A stretch of 9,418 nucleotides of DNA from a bacterium (GTDB taxonomy: Bacteria; UBA9089; CG2-30-40-21; SBAY01), in contig JBFLYA010000146.1 of the NCBI GenBank assembly GCA_040757115.1, positions 1 through 9,418 of the forward strand. Direction: 5' to 3'. A program made the position numbers and the translations under genes. The stretch's first letter is position 1; every line of letters starts with the position of its first letter. The notes beneath the pieces were generated by a model, which saw nothing but the letters and a program-made list of their open reading frames with translations, was not told where the DNA came from and did not search any database. Shown here piece after piece: positions 1,537 to 9,418 of this stretch.

Positions 1537-1585
1537 AAATTTGAGGTAACTATTCACCACGAAGAGCACGAAGGACATAAAGATG

Positions 1586-1675
1586 TTACAGAACAAATCC
1601 CTTTATGCCTTCTTTTAATCTTTCCACATTGAAATTTATCAATAGACCAACCTTGATATTTGCCAATTTCATATA
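1586..1675 (-). pseudogene. C-terminal remnant of a GxxExxY family protein
   Basis: On the minus strand the frame reads YMKLANIKVGLLINFN then VERLKEGIKGFVL and a stop. The K-V-G-L-L-I-N-F-N-V segment near the C-terminus is characteristic of GxxExxY proteins (TIGR04256-type, related to PD-(D/E)XK nucleases). The upstream frame (IPHFTDPLP...) keeps only a hint of the family and then runs into the AGTAGG repeat array. The GxxExxY motif itself and about three quarters of the gene (usual length about 120-140 residues) are missing. The fragment lies within the 1546-1974 element. My recollection is that GxxExxY genes in other genomes are often bordered by CCACGAAG-type words like these. Confidence 0.7.
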
Positions 1676-1710
1676 TGGTAATGGGTCAGTGAAATGGGGG
1701 ATTCTCCTGA

Positions 1711-1825
1711 AAGTAGGAAGTAGGAGAGTAGGAAAGTAGGAAAGGGGGAGACATTGCCCCCAGAAGAGGAATACCGTGCACATCCTTTATCCCTTTCCTA
1801 CTTACCTACTACCTACTTGCCTACT
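1711..1825. repeat. Inverted array of the AAGTAGG word inside the 1546-1974 element
   Basis: The left arm (1711-1746) repeats AGTAGGAAGTAGGAGAGTAGG-like words, and the right arm (1791-1825) repeats the complement (CCTACTT, CCTACT, CCTACTTGCC). AAGTAGGAAAGGG at 1734-1746 is exactly complementary to CCCTTTCCTACTT at 1791-1803. Just inside, GGGGG (1744-1748) can pair with CCCCC (1757-1761), an alternative inner stem. Confidence 0.7.
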
Positions 1826-2036
1826 ATTTTCATTGCTTTGTCCTCCGCAGGTTAATGTTCATTTCCCCAAATAACTGATTTATTACCATATATGTCAATA
1901 TTTGAGCTTCATGAATTCGATAATTCATCAAATTTCACTTCGTGCTCTCCGTGCCCTTCGTGGTGAATAGTTACAATTTTAGTAGGTTTTACCAAAATAG
2001 TAGAAGATATTTTTAAAAAAATTCTCGGTCAGCCTC

Positions 2037-2065
2037 TTGACAAAAGTTAAAAAATATGCTATTGT
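2037..2065 (+). promoter_or_regulatory. Probable promoter of the pilT-sppA operon
   Basis: TTGACA (2037-2042), a 17-bp spacer and TATTGT (2060-2065, 4 of 6 matches) lie upstream of pilT. The predicted start near 2072 gives a leader of about 365 nt, which contains an inserted 183-bp element. Without the insertion and one target copy the leader would be about 174 nt. The -10 box is weak, so confidence is moderate. Confidence 0.45.
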
Positions 2066-2104
2066 TAGAAATATAGTAGATACAGGTTGGATAAAAAGGT
2101 TAAA

Positions 2105-2162
2105 GGAGCGAGGGTAAAAGACCTTCCTCCGTGTTTCTTTCTCCTTCACTATGGAGGGGAAG
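2105..2162 (+). promoter_or_regulatory. Two mutually exclusive stems in the pilT leader
   Basis: CTTCCTCC (2123-2130) can pair upstream with GGAGCGAGGGT (2105-2115) or downstream with GGAGGGGAAG (2153-2162). Such alternatives are the shape of an attenuator or leader switch. No known riboswitch consensus is recognised, and no terminator stem with a T-run follows. Treat this as a weak structural observation. Confidence 0.22.
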
Positions 2163-2170
2163 AAAATTTG

Positions 2171-2353
2171 CCACCTGTGCGATTAGACTAATTCATCGCA
2201 GAGACGCAAAGGAAAAATAAATGTAAAATGTAAAATAGGAAATGAAAAATGGGAAATTTTAGGACTTCGCAAGACTCATTACCTTTCAGTTATACATTTT
2301 CATTTTACATTTCTCATTTTGCATTATCCATTTTACATTTAACCGCACAGGTC
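2171..2353. mobile_element. 183-bp MITE-like element flanked by 9-bp direct repeat GAAAATTTG
   Basis: The terminal inverted repeats are ACCTGTGCGATTAGA (2173-2187) and TTTAACCGCACAGGT (2338-2352), 13 of 15 positions complementary. The flanks are exact 9-bp direct repeats GAAAATTTG at 2162-2170 and 2354-2362, as expected from a target-site duplication. Inside are a CGCAGAGACGCAAAGG word (2198-2213), then an inverted array. Its left arm (2219-2260) is built of AAATGTAAAATG words and its right arm (about 2293-2340) of CATTTTACATTT words. No coding capacity is present. It lies in the pilT leader, downstream of the predicted promoter. Confidence 0.65.
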
Positions 2354-2437
2354 GAAAATTTGTCTGTTGGAGAAGACCAATAAAATCAACACTCAGTTTT
2401 ATCCGAGAGCGTTCTACTAAAAAAAAGGGGGTTAAAA

Positions 2438-3502
2438 ATGGTAAATATTAATGAATTACTTAAAAAAATGATAGAAAAGGAGGCTTCTGATTTACATATG
2501 AAAGTCGGCAGTCCACCTTCATTACGAATTTATGGGAAACTGTATCCTATTGAAGGATATAGTGTTCTGACTAAAGATGACACAAAAGCAATGGTAAATG
2601 CAATAACGACGGATGAACTAAAAAGGAGATTTGAGGAGGAGTCAGAGTTAGATACGGCATATACGGCAGAAGGGATAGGTCGATTTCGAGTGAATTTATT
2701 TCAGCAACAACGGACTTTTGGAGCGGTATTTCGCCATATCCCACTTAAAATAAGGAATTTTGAGGAGTTGGTGCTACCGGCACCAGTTTTAGGGACATTG
2801 TCTAATTTACAGCGTGGATTAGTTATTGTTACAGGTCCTACTGGCAGTGGTAAATCGACAACATTAGCCGCGATAATGAATAATATCAATTTAACTCAAC
2901 GCAAACATATCGTTACGATTGAAGACCCAATTGAATATGTTTTTGAGGATAAGATGTCAATTATTAATCAACGGGAGTTAGGCGTAGATACTAAATCTTT
3001 TAGTAATGCTTTACGCCGGGTATTACGGCAGGACCCTGATGTGATTATGGTTGGTGAGATGCGTGATTTAGAAACGATGAGTTTGACACTTTTAGCGGCT
3101 GAAACCGGTCATCTGGTTCTGGCAACGATGCATACCAGTGGTGTGGTTTTAGCTATTGATAGGCTTATTGATTCTTTTCCATCAGAACAACAACCTCAGG
3201 TTCGGATGCAATTATCACTGATATTAGAAGGTGTGATTTCTCAGGTATTGATTCCTCGAGCTGATGGAAAAGGTAGAGTTGTTGCCGTAGAAATCCTTAT
3301 GGGCACACCGGCGATTAGAAACTTGATTCGTGAAGGAAAAACTCACCAGATGACTACTCTTATCCATACGGGCGGACAATTTGGAATGCAGACAGTAGAA
3401 CAGGCATTAAAAGTTCTATATCAAAAAAATTTAGTTTCCTTTGAAGAGGCCTATGCCGCCTCTCATGATGCAGAAACCTTTAGAAAATTAGTTGGAAGAT
3501 AA
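2438..3502 (+). CDS. pilT: PilT, type IV pilus retraction ATPase
   Basis: Hexameric secretion ATPase that powers pilus retraction (twitching motility, adhesion, DNA uptake) at the cytoplasmic base of the type IV pilus. The 354 residues match the usual PilT length. Visible motifs are: N-terminal PAS-like region (1-110) with ASDLHMKVGSPPSLRI; Walker A GPTGSGKST (133-141); Asp box VTIEDPIEYV (159-168); Walker B with catalytic Glu, DPDVIMVGEMRD (199-210); His box GHLVLATMHTS (224-234). The C-terminal AIRNLIRE (292-299) is diagnostic for PilT against PilB/GspE. After the His box, GVVLAIDRLIDSFP differs from the common HTxSAxxTIDRIIDxFP by lacking the usual Ser/Ala-rich segment. The start follows AAGGGGG (2425-2431), 6 nt upstream. 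No pilB, pilC or pilin gene is nearby. sppA begins 3 bp after the stop, so the two are co-transcribed. Confidence 0.96.
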   Translation: MVNINELLKKMIEKEASDLHMKVGSPPSLRIYGKLYPIEGYSVLTKDDTKAMVNAITTDELKRRFEEESELDTAYTAEGIGRFRVNLFQQQRTFGAVFRHIPLKIRNFEELVLPAPVLGTLSNLQRGLVIVTGPTGSGKSTTLAAIMNNINLTQRKHIVTIEDPIEYVFEDKMSIINQRELGVDTKSFSNALRRVLRQDPDVIMVGEMRDLETMSLTLLAAETGHLVLATMHTSGVVLAIDRLIDSFPSEQQPQVRMQLSLILEGVISQVLIPRADGKGRVVAVEILMGTPAIRNLIREGKTHQMTTLIHTGGQFGMQTVEQALKVLYQKNLVSFEEAYAASHDAETFRKLVGR

Positions 3503-3505
3503 ACA

Positions 3506-4456
3506 ATGAAAAAAGAAAGCTTAGTTGTTACAGCTATTTTACTTTTGTGTATAATTTCAATTGGTCTGGGAGTCTATTCGATTTTCCTTCGCCAGGAACA
3601 GATTGTAGAAGAGGCATTATTCCCAAAGGGATTATTGCCAGAAAAAAAGAAGATAGCAGTAGTTCATATTTATGGAGCGATTACTCTTTCAGATGATGTT
3701 GGGGGGTTGTATAAACCATTTCGTGGCACACAATATATCATTGACCAACTTAAAAAATTTAAGAAAGAACCAAATATTGCCGCAGTAATATTAAGAATAA
3801 ATAGCCCCGGCGGAACAGTTGCCGCAGTTCAAGAGATATATCAGCAAATACAAGAACTTAAAAAGGCAAAGAAAAAAGTAGTTGTTTCCATTGGAGACAT
3901 ATCCGCCTCAGGGGCATATTATATTGCCTGTGGTGCAGATAAAATTGTGGCTAATCAGGGTTCTTTAATCGGTAGTATTGGTGTCATTATGACTCTGCCC
4001 AGTATCCATGGATTTCTTGAAAAGGTAGGGGTAAAATTTAATATCATTAAAAGTGGGAAATATAAAGATATTGGTTCTGCTTTTAAAGAAATGAATGAAG
4101 AAGAAAAAGTAATCCTTCAAGGAGTAATTGATAATGCCTATAACCAATTTTTTAATGTTGTGGCTGAAAACAGACCAGAGATTAAGAAAGAAAAACTAAT
4201 GAGCCTTGCTGATGGTCGGATATTCACCGGTGAGCAGGCAAAGGAAGTTGGATTAATCGATGAATTAGGAACTTATGAAGATGTAATAAAATTCACGGCT
4301 AAATTGGCAAATATTGAAGGTGAACCAGTAGTTGTTGAGGAAGAAAAGTCACTTAAACGCCTATTAGACTTTATGGAAATCAAAAACCCATTTGAAAAAA
4401 TCCAGCAAGATTCTACAAAAGCCCTTCTCGAATATAGATATATTCCAGGAATATGA
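3506..4456 (+). CDS. sppA: SppA, signal peptide peptidase (S49 family)
   Basis: Membrane-bound serine protease that degrades cleaved signal peptides. The 316 residues match the short single-domain SppA of Gram-positive and many other bacteria, not the tandem 67-kDa E. coli form. An N-terminal membrane anchor spans about residues 7-27. The S49 domain begins at KIAVVHIYGAI (49-59), followed by NSPGGTVAA (99-107). The nucleophile motif SASGAYYIACGADKIV puts the catalytic Ser at 135, and IKSGKYKDIGS puts the catalytic Lys at 187. The Ser-Lys spacing of 52 equals that of B. subtilis SppA (S147/K199). FTGEQAKEVGLIDELG (240-255) is also typical. The start has GGAAG at 3494-3498 inside the end of pilT, with 3 bp between stop and start, so translation is probably coupled. 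An inverted-repeat element begins 16 bp after the stop. Confidence 0.95.
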   Translation: MKKESLVVTAILLLCIISIGLGVYSIFLRQEQIVEEALFPKGLLPEKKKIAVVHIYGAITLSDDVGGLYKPFRGTQYIIDQLKKFKKEPNIAAVILRINSPGGTVAAVQEIYQQIQELKKAKKKVVVSIGDISASGAYYIACGADKIVANQGSLIGSIGVIMTLPSIHGFLEKVGVKFNIIKSGKYKDIGSAFKEMNEEEKVILQGVIDNAYNQFFNVVAENRPEIKKEKLMSLADGRIFTGEQAKEVGLIDELGTYEDVIKFTAKLANIEGEPVVVEEEKSLKRLLDFMEIKNPFEKIQQDSTKALLEYRYIPGI

Positions 4457-4472
4457 TAGGGTTTCACGAAAG

Positions 4473-4713
4473 GTAACTATTCAGCCACTGATTAACACGG
4501 ATTAGCACGGATAAATACAGAGGTCAGAAGATAGAAGGCAGAGAGCAGAAGGCAGAGGGCAGAGGAGAAAGGGGGAAACAGGAGAAACGGAGAAAGGGAG
4601 AAATCTGTGTCCTCTGCGGTAAAATCTTGCGAAAATCTGTGTAATCTGCGGATTATTTTCAGGTCACGAATTTTCAGTGTTTCATCCGTGTCCATCTGTG
4701 GCTGAATAGTTAC
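4473..4713. mobile_element. 241-bp inverted-repeat element, GTAACTATTCA cap, between convergent genes
   Basis: GTAACTATTCAGCCAC (4473-4488) is exactly complementary to 4698-4713. Inward, the similarity continues at about 11 of 15 positions through an ACACGGAT word (left GATTAACACGGATT, right the complement of CATCCGTGTCCATC). The interior has AGAAGGCAGAG-type direct repeats (about 4521-4566), then GGAGAAA repeats (about 4565-4602), then CTGTGTAATCTGCGG-type words. No target duplication is seen (flanks CACGAAAG and TTTACTTT). It fills the gap between sppA and the convergent helicase gene, so its arms may act as a bidirectional 3'-end structure, although no classical T-tailed terminator is seen. 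Confidence 0.6.
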
Positions 4714-6633: not shown

Positions 6634-7038
6634 GGGTGTATGTAAAATTTGTGGGTAACTTTTAACACCTCTATTTTTATCAATTTCCTCCAAAGAGCAA
6701 AATGCAAAACTCGTTTATAGTTTATAGTTTATAGTTTATGGTTTATAGTTTATGGTTTATGGTTTATAGTTTATGGTTTATGGTTTATAGTTTATAGTTT
6801 ATGGTTTATAGTTTATAGTTTATGGTTTATAGTTTATAGTTTATGGTTTATAGTTTATGGTTTATAGTCCTTCAACTATAAACTATCAACTATAAACTAT
6901 CAACTATCTACTACATTTCAGCGTTAAAATACTTGAAGTCCTTTTTGAAATTTGATTTGTAATTTTGCATTTTGATATTTGATTTAATTTCAGGTCTAAC
7001 TCTCAGAATATTTTTACCCATAAATTTTACACGCACCC
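6634..7038. mobile_element. 405-bp MITE-like element with 25-bp terminal inverted repeats and 8-bp target duplication
   Basis: The left terminus (6634-6658) begins GGGTGTATGTAAAATTT and continues GTGGGTAA. The right terminus (7014-7038) is its reverse complement with 3 mismatches in 25. The element is flanked by GTGTATTA at 6626-6633 and again at 7039-7046, an exact 8-bp duplication (9 if the shared G is included). The interior lacks any gene. It contains a 22-unit heptanucleotide array with an inverted partner (6713-6908), and an inner inverted word, GCAAAATGCAAAA (about 6697-6709) against TTTTGCATTTTGA (6963-6975). It is inserted between two divergent promoters without altering either. With the element and one target copy removed, the -35 boxes would be 34 bp apart. 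Confidence 0.8.
6713..6866 (+). repeat. 22 tandem copies of the heptamer GTTTATR
   Basis: The array is exactly 154 nt with no interruptions: every unit is GTTTATA or GTTTATG. The order of last bases is AAAGAGGAGGAAGAAGAAGAGA. Just downstream (about 6873-6908) is an inverted partner made of complementary heptamers, TATAAAC alternating with TATCAAC, so the strand can form a long hairpin. An uninterrupted heptamer array this long is expected to vary in copy number by replication slippage. Confidence 0.92.
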
Positions 7039-7065
7039 GTGTATTAGGTTCTTTGCAAATAGCGG

Positions 7066-7104: not shown

Positions 7105-9021
7105 ATGGAACAACATAAGGTTATCTTTTATCCAGGTGGAGAAATAGGTAATGCGGCTGATGGTGAGAGTTTGCTTCGTGTGGCGGCGGCGGCTGGGCTT
7201 TATATTACCGCCTCTTGCGGTGGAAATCACACCTGTGGGAAATGCAAGGTTATCATTGAATCAGGCACAATCGAAGGCGGAATATCAGAAAAACTCACGG
7301 CTGAAGAAATAAAAAAGGGCTACAGATTAGCCTGTGTTTCTAAGATAAAGAGTAACCTAACTGTCCGAATTCCGGCAGAATCCCAATTTTCAGATAAACG
7401 CTTGCTGGAAGAATCTGTTTCAAAACGACTCCTTATCCCGGAATCCCTGAAAGACATAAGACCAGATTATAAACTCGACCCCCTATTGAATAAATACTAT
7501 CTTGAATTACCCCCACCAACTAAAGAGGATAATATCGATGATTTCTCCCGTGTTAAAAGAGCAATTAAGTCAACATATAAAGATTGTTCAATTAACCTTT
7601 TTTCTTTAAACAAACTGCCACAGACCTTGAGAGAATCAAACTTTAAGATTACTCTAACCTTACTTGAAGAGGAGAAAAATAAACCAAAGATAGTAAATAT
7701 CGAAGAGGGGAATACACAGGATAGACATTTTGCCCTTGCCATTGATGTTGGGACAACCTCAATTTATGTTCGATTAATTAACCTTTCGTCAGGAGAGATT
7801 CTCGCCACGGTCTCAGACTACAATGCTCAGATTGGCTACGGAGAAGATGTGATTACGCGGATAGTGTATTCGTTAAAGGGTGATGGGCTTAAAATATTGC
7901 AAGAGGCGGTGGTCAAAACCATAGAATTACTCATCACTCAAATACTTAACGAGAAAAATATCACCCGCCAGGAAATATCCTATCTTGTTGCCGCAGGAAA
8001 TACGACAATGGTGCATTTATTAGCCGGAATTACACCTAAATATCTGCGTGAGGCACCTTATGTTCCGGTAACAAATTCATCTATTGAGATTCAAGCCTCC
8101 AAAATTGGGCTTGAATTTCCTGAATATGTCCATCTTTATATTTTGCCCGGAGTGGCAAGTTATGTTGGTGGGGATATTACCGCCGGTGTGCTTGGAACAG
8201 GGCTTTTTCAATCTGATGAATTAACCCTGTTCATAGATATTGGCACTAATGGTGAGGTAGTTCTGGGAAATAAAGATTGGTTAATCACAACCTCATGTTC
8301 AGCCGGACCTGCCTTTGAAGGAGGCACAATAAAACATGGAATGCGAGCAACCATTGGCGCTATCGAGCAGGTAGAAATAGGTAATGATTATGAACCAATG
8401 CTTATTACGATTGGTCATAAATCTCCAAAGGGAATATGTGGTGCAGGATTGATTAGTTTAGTCGCCGAGTTATTGGAGACGGGAATAATATCTCAAAAGG
8501 GTAAGTTTAATACCAATATCGATACCCCACGAATTAGAACGACGCAGGGGATAAAGGAATATGTTCTTTGTTACGCAGACCAGACTGACATCGCCAGCGA
8601 TATAGTTATTACCGAACCTGACATTGATGACCTTATTCGTGCCAAAGGCGCTATGTATGCTGGTATTTGCACATTACTTAATAGTGTCCGTCTTAGTATT
8701 ATGGATATTTCTAAGATAATCGTTGCGGGGAATCTGGGATTTCACCTTGAGATAGAAAAGGCAATTACAATCGGTCTTTTACCAGAGGTCTCATCTTCAA
8801 AATTTATATTTATCGGAAATGGCTCTTTACCTGGAACAACACTTTGTGCCCTATCAAAAGAGATGTTCGAGCAGGTAAAACAGATTGCTAATTCAATGAC
8901 AAATATTGAGCTTTCAGATAATTCTGAATTTATGAATGAATACATCGCCGCCCTTTTTCTACCTCATACCGAAGAAAAAAGATTCCCAAATATATTTAAA
9001 ATGCTCTCTTCGTTGAACTAA
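7105..9021 (+). CDS. RACo-like corrinoid protein reductive activator (2Fe-2S ferredoxin domain plus ASKHA ATPase, DUF4445)
   Basis: ATP-dependent activator that passes an electron from its [2Fe-2S] cluster to the Co(II) centre of a corrinoid protein, returning it to active Co(I). Known partners are the corrinoid iron-sulfur protein of the Wood-Ljungdahl pathway and methyltransferase corrinoid proteins. There are 638 residues from the ATG at 7105. The N-terminal ferredoxin domain (1-95) has C38, C44, C47 and C77 in the plant-type CX5CX2CXnC pattern. A linker and middle domain (about 96-205) follows. The ASKHA core has LAIDVGTTSIYVRL (211-224), AAGNTTMVHLLAG (296-308), FIDIGTNGEVVLG (376-388) and CSAGPAFEGG (398-407). 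The C-terminal DUF4445 part has GICGAGLISLVAELL (443-457), IRAKGAMYAGI (511-521) and VAGNLGFHL (540-548). The start is chosen from ferredoxin-domain alignment and the promoter. No acs or methyltransferase genes lie in the window, so the substrate is unknown. Confidence 0.92.
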   Translation: MEQHKVIFYPGGEIGNAADGESLLRVAAAAGLYITASCGGNHTCGKCKVIIESGTIEGGISEKLTAEEIKKGYRLACVSKIKSNLTVRIPAESQFSDKRLLEESVSKRLLIPESLKDIRPDYKLDPLLNKYYLELPPPTKEDNIDDFSRVKRAIKSTYKDCSINLFSLNKLPQTLRESNFKITLTLLEEEKNKPKIVNIEEGNTQDRHFALAIDVGTTSIYVRLINLSSGEILATVSDYNAQIGYGEDVITRIVYSLKGDGLKILQEAVVKTIELLITQILNEKNITRQEISYLVAAGNTTMVHLLAGITPKYLREAPYVPVTNSSIEIQASKIGLEFPEYVHLYILPGVASYVGGDITAGVLGTGLFQSDELTLFIDIGTNGEVVLGNKDWLITTSCSAGPAFEGGTIKHGMRATIGAIEQVEIGNDYEPMLITIGHKSPKGICGAGLISLVAELLETGIISQKGKFNTNIDTPRIRTTQGIKEYVLCYADQTDIASDIVITEPDIDDLIRAKGAMYAGICTLLNSVRLSIMDISKIIVAGNLGFHLEIEKAITIGLLPEVSSSKFIFIGNGSLPGTTLCALSKEMFEQVKQIANSMTNIELSDNSEFMNEYIAALFLPHTEEKRFPNIFKMLSSLN

Positions 9022-9070: not shown

Positions 9071-9100
9071 GGTAACCGTTCACCGCACAGACGCAGAGAA
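9071..9100 (+). repeat. Solo element end: GGTAACCGTTCA cap plus CGCACAGACGCAGAG word
   Basis: GGTAACCGTTCA (9071-9082) is a variant of the GGTAACTATTCA cap seen at the left end of the elements at 1546 and 4473. It is followed by CCGCACAGACGCAGAGAA (9083-9100). ACCGCACAG is also found at the right end of the 2171-2353 element (2342-2350). No matching inverted partner is found between here and the end of the window. Confidence 0.45.
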
Positions 9101-9108
9101 AAAAATTG

Positions 9109-9196: not shown

Positions 9197-9418
9197 GGTA
9201 ACCGTTCATGGATATAGCCACGAATGAACACGAATAATAAAAAGATTTGTAGTGCGAGGCTTTAGCCTCGCTTCTGGCAAGCAGGAAAGCAAACCTAATT
9301 GCTTTTTCATAAATAGGTTCCTCTTTTGGGGAGAGCGATAGCAAGAAGAACTTTAATGTAAATATCAAAATGCAAATATCAAAATTACAATGCAAAATGC
9401 AAAAATACTTGTAAATTA
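9197..9418. mobile_element. Left part of a further capped mosaic element, running off the window
   Basis: It opens with GGTAACCGTTCA (9197-9208), in the same orientation as the cap at 9071, then the word CCACGAATGAACACGAATAA (9218-9237). A perfect hairpin GCGAGGCTTTAGCCTCGC (9254-9271, 8-bp stem, TT loop) comes next. From 9353 there is an array of AAATATCAAAATGCAAA-type words. AAATATCAAAATGCAAA at 9360-9376 is an exact 17-nt reverse-complement match to 6964-6980 inside the 405-bp element. No right end is visible. The minus-strand frame across this region is composed of these words and is not a gene. Confidence 0.45.

What the first reader, a model, noticed from the sequence alone, without database searches (positions are those of the whole stretch)
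1546..4713. A shared terminal cap GTAACTATTCA on otherwise different elements
All four ends of the elements at 1546-1974 and 4473-4713 start with GTAACTATTCA, but the next sequence differs (CCACGAAG versus GCCACTGATT/GCCACAGATGG). Variants GGTAACCGTTCA begin two further segments at 9071 and 9197, again followed by different words. A constant cap joined to interchangeable word modules suggests a recognition site for an enzyme that does not care about the cargo. I know of no described element class with this layout.
Basis: partly seen in the sequence, partly recalled or inferred. Interest (0 to 1): 0.62.

Follow-up and report, generated by a model that had tools for sequence, protein, structure and literature searches.

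The report
IS66-type MITE families sharing one end
The shared GTAACTATTCA "cap" is the end recognised by an IS66-family transposase, and the capped segments are several families of small non-autonomous transposons (MITEs) that have spread to hundreds of sites in this uncultured bacterium's genome, which is unusually abundant but of a known kind.

Summary
GTAA[C/G]YRTTCA occurs 1,328 times in the 4.32-Mb host genome against 24 for the reversed pattern. In a 1.09-Mb sample it bounds 118 inverted pairs of mostly 90-500 bp, and 42 of these have an exact 8-bp target duplication (shuffled expectation 0.4; none at 9-12 bp). In a sister genome 98% identical in genes, 16 capped elements have a clean empty site that differs by exactly one 8-bp copy.

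The same cap bounds IS66 transposase genes, including an intact 468-aa single-ORF element, in this phylum. A published IS66-family element of the ISBst12 group has nearly the same ends (GTAACTGCTCAGCA) and an 8-bp duplication (PMC12898284). These are therefore MITEs mobilised by IS66 (ISBst12-type) transposase.

Copies at 9072 and 9198 are truncated solo ends. Loose end: about 60% of pairs lack a duplication, and in at least four sister-genome cases the element replaced 80-241 bp of unique DNA exactly between its ends; adjacent deletion or recombination would explain this.

The parts
1546..1974 (.). MITE of the CCACGAAG family (B), 429 bp; its 268-bp relatives match only the two ends (1546-1611 and 1915-1974), and the middle carries an AGTAGG heptamer-repeat segment
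   Evidence: caps and 37-nt 84% inverted repeat; family members; flanks AATTTGAG/AATTTTAG, 7 of 8 identical
1546..1556 (+). left cap GTAACTATTCA (IS66-type end)
1964..1974 (-). right cap GTAACTATTCA
1704..1829 (.). AGTAGG heptamer-repeat segment inside element 1, shared with the H family and with other loci
   Evidence: BLAST to H-family element L076 5766-6235; the same junction context recurs elsewhere
4473..4713 (.). MITE of the GCCACTGAT/GCCACAGATGG family (A), 241 bp, folds into a long hairpin; no target duplication (CACGAAAG/TTTACTTT); absent from the orthologous site of the sister genome
   Evidence: fold z-score -5.75
4473..4483 (+). left cap GTAACTATTCA
4703..4713 (-). right cap GTAACTATTCA
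9072..9107 (+). solo end of the CCGCAGAGACGCAGAG family (C): cap GTAACCGTTCA plus about 25 nt, no partner
   Evidence: 93% over 28 nt to a full-length C element
9198..9298 (+). truncated copy of the GGATATAGCCACAGAG family (D): cap end plus interior with an internal deletion of about 26 nt, right end missing
   Evidence: 96% over 24 nt and 95% over 87 nt to D element L095 19645-19886
2165..2360 (.). unrelated second MITE family (ACCTGTGCRGTTA ends) between two GAAAATTT copies; the sister genome has a capped D-family MITE at exactly this site

Best explanation
GTAA[C/G]YRTTCA is the terminal inverted repeat of IS66-family elements, apparently of the single-ORF ISBst12 kind. The capped segments are non-autonomous MITEs, about ten families with unrelated cores, moved in trans by IS66 transposase. 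The transposase recognises the ends, inserts the element at A/T-rich sites and duplicates 8 bp. Shown: caps, inverted pairing, 8-bp duplication, insertion polymorphism between sister genomes, and IS66 genes bounded by the same caps. Inferred: that IS66 transposase acts on these ends, and that the roughly 60% of pairs without a duplication lost it through adjacent deletion or through recombination between copies.
For: Exact 8-bp duplications in 42 of 118 pairs, against 0.4 in shuffled pairings and 0 at 9-12 bp. Sixteen elements with an exact -8 empty site in the sister genome, e.g. L076 17570-17863 and L085 397-633. The own-genome IS66 gene (PF03050, E 1.9e-39) lies between inverted GTAACCGTTCAGG caps 1,563 bp apart. 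Other capped IS66 copies: G004 C299, 1,505 bp, perfect GTAACCGTTCA at both ends, intact 468-aa ORF with DDE_Tnp_IS66 and zf-IS66, in a genome with only 7 GGTAACYRTTCA sites; G014 C31, GTAACTATTCA at both ends; G005 C86, GTAACTACTCA at both ends; a decayed Spartobacteria IS66 copy with GTAACCGTTCA at both ends. Published IS66 ends and duplications agree: ISDge4, 5'-GTAACTGCTCAGCA with DR CCTCGATG (PMC12898284); GTAACCGTCCGGGCA and GTAAGCGTCCGG in Pseudomonas IS66 elements (PMC12888890); 8-bp DR for Paracoccus IS66 elements (PMC3281130).
Against: The only near-complete IS66 copy in the window's own assembly has stop codons, and four further copies are fragments, three of them at contig ends. An intact driver in this genome is therefore not demonstrated. 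Of 118 pairs, 76 have no duplication, including 16 of 19 in the window's A family and all 5 pairs joining the two common B-family ends.
Confidence: 0.93

Rival explanations
1. A cap-and-cargo modular system in which one enzyme joins a constant cap to interchangeable word modules.
For: One cap is followed by at least ten different sequences. The CCACGAAGGG end occurs opposite two different partner ends (clusters 6-7 and 7-13).
Against: Cargo ends pair with fixed partners: 100 of 118 pairs fall in recurrent combinations, and only four join different major families. Word modules of the CCGCAGAG type are capped in 91 of 99 cases, so they are not independent modules in this genome.
Confidence: 0.04
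2. The driver is another transposase family that makes 8-bp duplications (IS1, IS256 or IS1595 type) and IS66 genes happen to lie nearby.
For: Such families can also make 8-bp duplications (general knowledge). An IS1-like gene and an IS256 gene exist in this genome.
Against: The IS1-like element has different ends, GGTGGTGTCTG. No cap pair bounds the IS256 gene, which lies on C232. No IS1595 gene was found in either genome. IS66 copies in several genomes are bounded exactly by the cap.
Confidence: 0.03
3. Non-mobile structural repeats (hairpins, terminators or REP-like sequences) conserved for a function in transcripts.
For: Elements are intergenic in the window, and the 241-bp element folds into a long hairpin (z -5.75).
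Against: Insertion polymorphism with 8-bp duplications between near-identical genomes, and bounded transposases. No Rfam match in the window.
Confidence: 0.02

Closest known systems
IS66 family, ISBst12 group (e.g. ISDge4 of Deinococcus geothermalis)
   Same: Ends GTAACTGCTCAGCA/GTGACTACTCAGCA against GTAACTATTCAGC[C/A] here; 8-bp target duplication; single transposase ORF in the capped 1,505-bp relative (PMC12898284).
   Different: The window elements have no transposase, are 241 and 429 bp long, and have unrelated cores.
Bacterial IS-derived MITEs (e.g. MITECca01 from an IS982-family element, MITEPsy1)
   Same: Short non-autonomous elements that keep terminal repeats like those of a parent IS; MITEPsy1 also duplicates its target (PMC9769881, PMC3189936).
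   Different: Here the parent is IS66-type, at least ten core families share one end type, and the genome holds about 1,300 cap ends.

Membership tests
MITE of an IS66-family element | terminal inverted repeats matching the parent IS | tested here: met
   identical caps on MITEs and on IS66-gene-bearing elements
MITE of an IS66-family element | 8-bp target site duplication | tested here: met
   42 of 118 exact, shuffled 0.4; 16 empty sites. Not met for window element 2; 7 of 8 for window element 1
MITE of an IS66-family element | no transposase gene, short (under about 600 bp) | tested here: met
   no ORF of 80 aa or more in the two window elements; length distribution mostly 90-500 bp
MITE of an IS66-family element | mobilised in trans by IS66 transposase | not testable with these tools
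   needs a transposition assay
IS66 family, ISBst12 group (autonomous partner) | single ORF with DDE_Tnp_IS66 and zf-IS66 domains and GTAA ends | tested here: met
   G004 C299 element, 468 aa, PF03050 E 4.5e-39, PF13005; membership in the ISBst12 group itself was inferred from the single ORF, not from a tree

The most novel reading that the evidence does not exclude
One IS66 end has repeatedly been acquired by many unrelated cores, and insertion follows two modes. One is ordinary, with an 8-bp duplication. The other is a replacement mode that removes about 80-240 bp of host DNA precisely between the element ends. If this is an intrinsic activity of the ISBst12-type transposase rather than later deletion, it would be a new transposition outcome.
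Probability: 0.1. Interest if true: 0.55.

Novelty: new member of a known kind. Interest (0 to 1): 0.33.

Why it matters
It identifies an IS66-driven MITE expansion of about 1,300 ends in one 4.3-Mb genome. I found no described IS66-derived MITE family in the open literature held here. It also explains recurrent intergenic "word" repeats (CCGCAGAGACGCAGAG, CCACGAAG, GCCACAGATG) in this lineage as transposon interiors.

Tried and rejected
Rfam: no match in the window. TSD-swap test for recombination between copies: only 2 matches, both AAAATTTG, uninformative because only a quarter of the genome was sampled. Words as independent modules under other caps: few, mostly decayed caps. Other transposase families with 8-bp duplications: IS256 without cap, IS1595 absent, IS1-like with different ends. 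Exact-sequence literature search for caps and words: no relevant paper. Organism name not established: the genome-contig scan returned only unnamed "bacterium" MAGs (Yes70-11, Yes70-31) as the near-identical matches.

Full report
Observation. The four inverted copies of GTAACTATTCA and the two copies of GGTAACCGTTCA are present where stated. The window count far exceeds chance (6 against 0.12). In the host genome (4,317,218 bases, 462 contigs) GGTAACYRTTCA occurs 310 times against 11 for the reversed pattern. Without the leading G, and allowing C or G at position 5, the count is 1,328 against 24. The leading G is not part of the element.

Anatomy. I read 1.09 Mb of the host genome. Caps (at most 1 mismatch) form 118 convergent pairs of 49-659 bp, most of them 150-300 bp, against 29 divergent neighbours within the same distance. 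Comparing the flanks, an exact direct repeat abutting both ends occurs in 42 of 118 pairs at length 8. Shuffled pairings give 0.4, and there are none at lengths 9-12. That is the signature of transposition with an 8-bp target duplication. Target sites are A/T-rich.

Sister genome. The relative G001 is about 98% identical to the window in its genes. Taking each capped element's flanks to the other genome, 16 elements with a perfect duplication have an empty site that differs by exactly one 8-bp copy. The elements have therefore moved since the two lineages split. Window element 2 is absent from the G001 site, which carries other repeats instead.

The transposase. In the own genome a decayed IS66 transposase (PF03050) lies between inverted GTAACCGTTCAGG caps 1,563 bp apart. 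In the phylum, IS66 copies are bounded by the same cap. In G004 C299 the ends are perfect, the element is 1,505 bp and it has one intact 468-aa ORF with IS66 DDE and zinc-finger domains. In G014 C31 both ends are GTAACTATTCA. In G005 C86 both ends are GTAACTACTCA. A decayed Spartobacteria IS66 copy also has GTAACCGTTCA at both ends. G004 has only 7 GGTAACYRTTCA sites in 2.6 Mb, so two perfect caps around its transposase are not chance. Published IS66-family ends and duplications match: ISDge4 of the ISBst12 group has 5'-GTAACTGCTCAGCA and DR CCTCGATG (PMC12898284); Pseudomonas IS66 elements have GTAACCGTCCGGGCA or GTAAGCGTCCGG (PMC12888890); Paracoccus IS66 elements have 8-bp DR (PMC3281130).

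Families, not modules. Clustering 40 nt after each cap gives fourteen clusters of three or more ends. The left-right matrix is nearly block-diagonal: 30, 19, 18, 12, 5, 3 and 3 pairs in the commonest combinations and four pairs across major families. Cap subtype follows family: GTAACTATTCA with the CCACGAAG and GCCACAGAT families, GTAACCGTTCA (often opposite GTAAGCGTTCA) with most others. The word CCGCAGAGACGCAGAG carries an adjacent or near cap in 91 of 99 cases. So these are discrete MITE families sharing an end, not interchangeable modules. Window 9072-9107 and 9198-9298 are truncated copies of the C and D families. Element 1 is longer than its 268-bp relatives, which match only its two ends, because of internal sequence that includes an AGTAGG heptamer-repeat segment.

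Loose end. Seventy-six pairs have no duplication. In the sister comparison no such element has a clean -8 empty site. In four cases the other genome has 80-241 bp of DNA with no second copy in the two samples exactly where the element sits; in one of these that DNA is part of an open reading frame that the element has truncated (L059, L062 3509, G001 L154 15659, G001 L163 8316). Transposase-mediated adjacent deletion, or recombination between two nearby copies, would produce this (inference). Short-read misassembly cannot be excluded for other copies.

Verdict. An ordinary mechanism (IS66-type MITEs) with unusual abundance and diversity of cores. The functional link between IS66 transposase and these ends is strongly supported by anatomy but was not tested experimentally.

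Noticed in passing
window 2165-2360; L111 (G001 C95): The same GAAAATTT target duplication flanks a different MITE in each sister genome: the ACCTGTGCRGTTA family in the window, a capped D-family IS66 MITE in G001. Both families favour AAATTTT-like sites, so a shared hot spot is likelier than element exchange.
   Followed up: partly
window 6636-7048: A segment of about 413 bp with TTTATAG/TTTATGG heptamer repeats and inverted ends (GTGTATGTAAAATTTGTGGGTAA / ACCCATAAATTTTACACGCACC), flanked by GTGTATTAGG on both sides; absent from the sister genome, which has a single TATGTATCAGG. Another mobile repeat with STRR-like words inside.
   Followed up: no
L056 1-960, L057 2840-3800; L076 5057-5416: An IS1-like transposase with GGTGGTGTCTGAAA ends, and MITEs of about 360-450 bp with the same ends (GGTGGTGTCTGAAAATAAC...AAGACACCACC), suggest a second, IS1-driven MITE system in this genome.
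   Followed up: partly
L062 3509-3748 against L139: A capped element replaces 241 bp near the 3' end of an ORF that is intact in the sister genome (protein ending ...NNPEIRKKIIKIINNLVER), with no target duplication.
   Followed up: partly
window 7105-9021: A corrinoid activation/regeneration protein (best match AcsV, 695 bits, below the curated cut-off of 800), a hint of Wood-Ljungdahl or methyl-corrinoid metabolism in this uncultured lineage.
   Followed up: no
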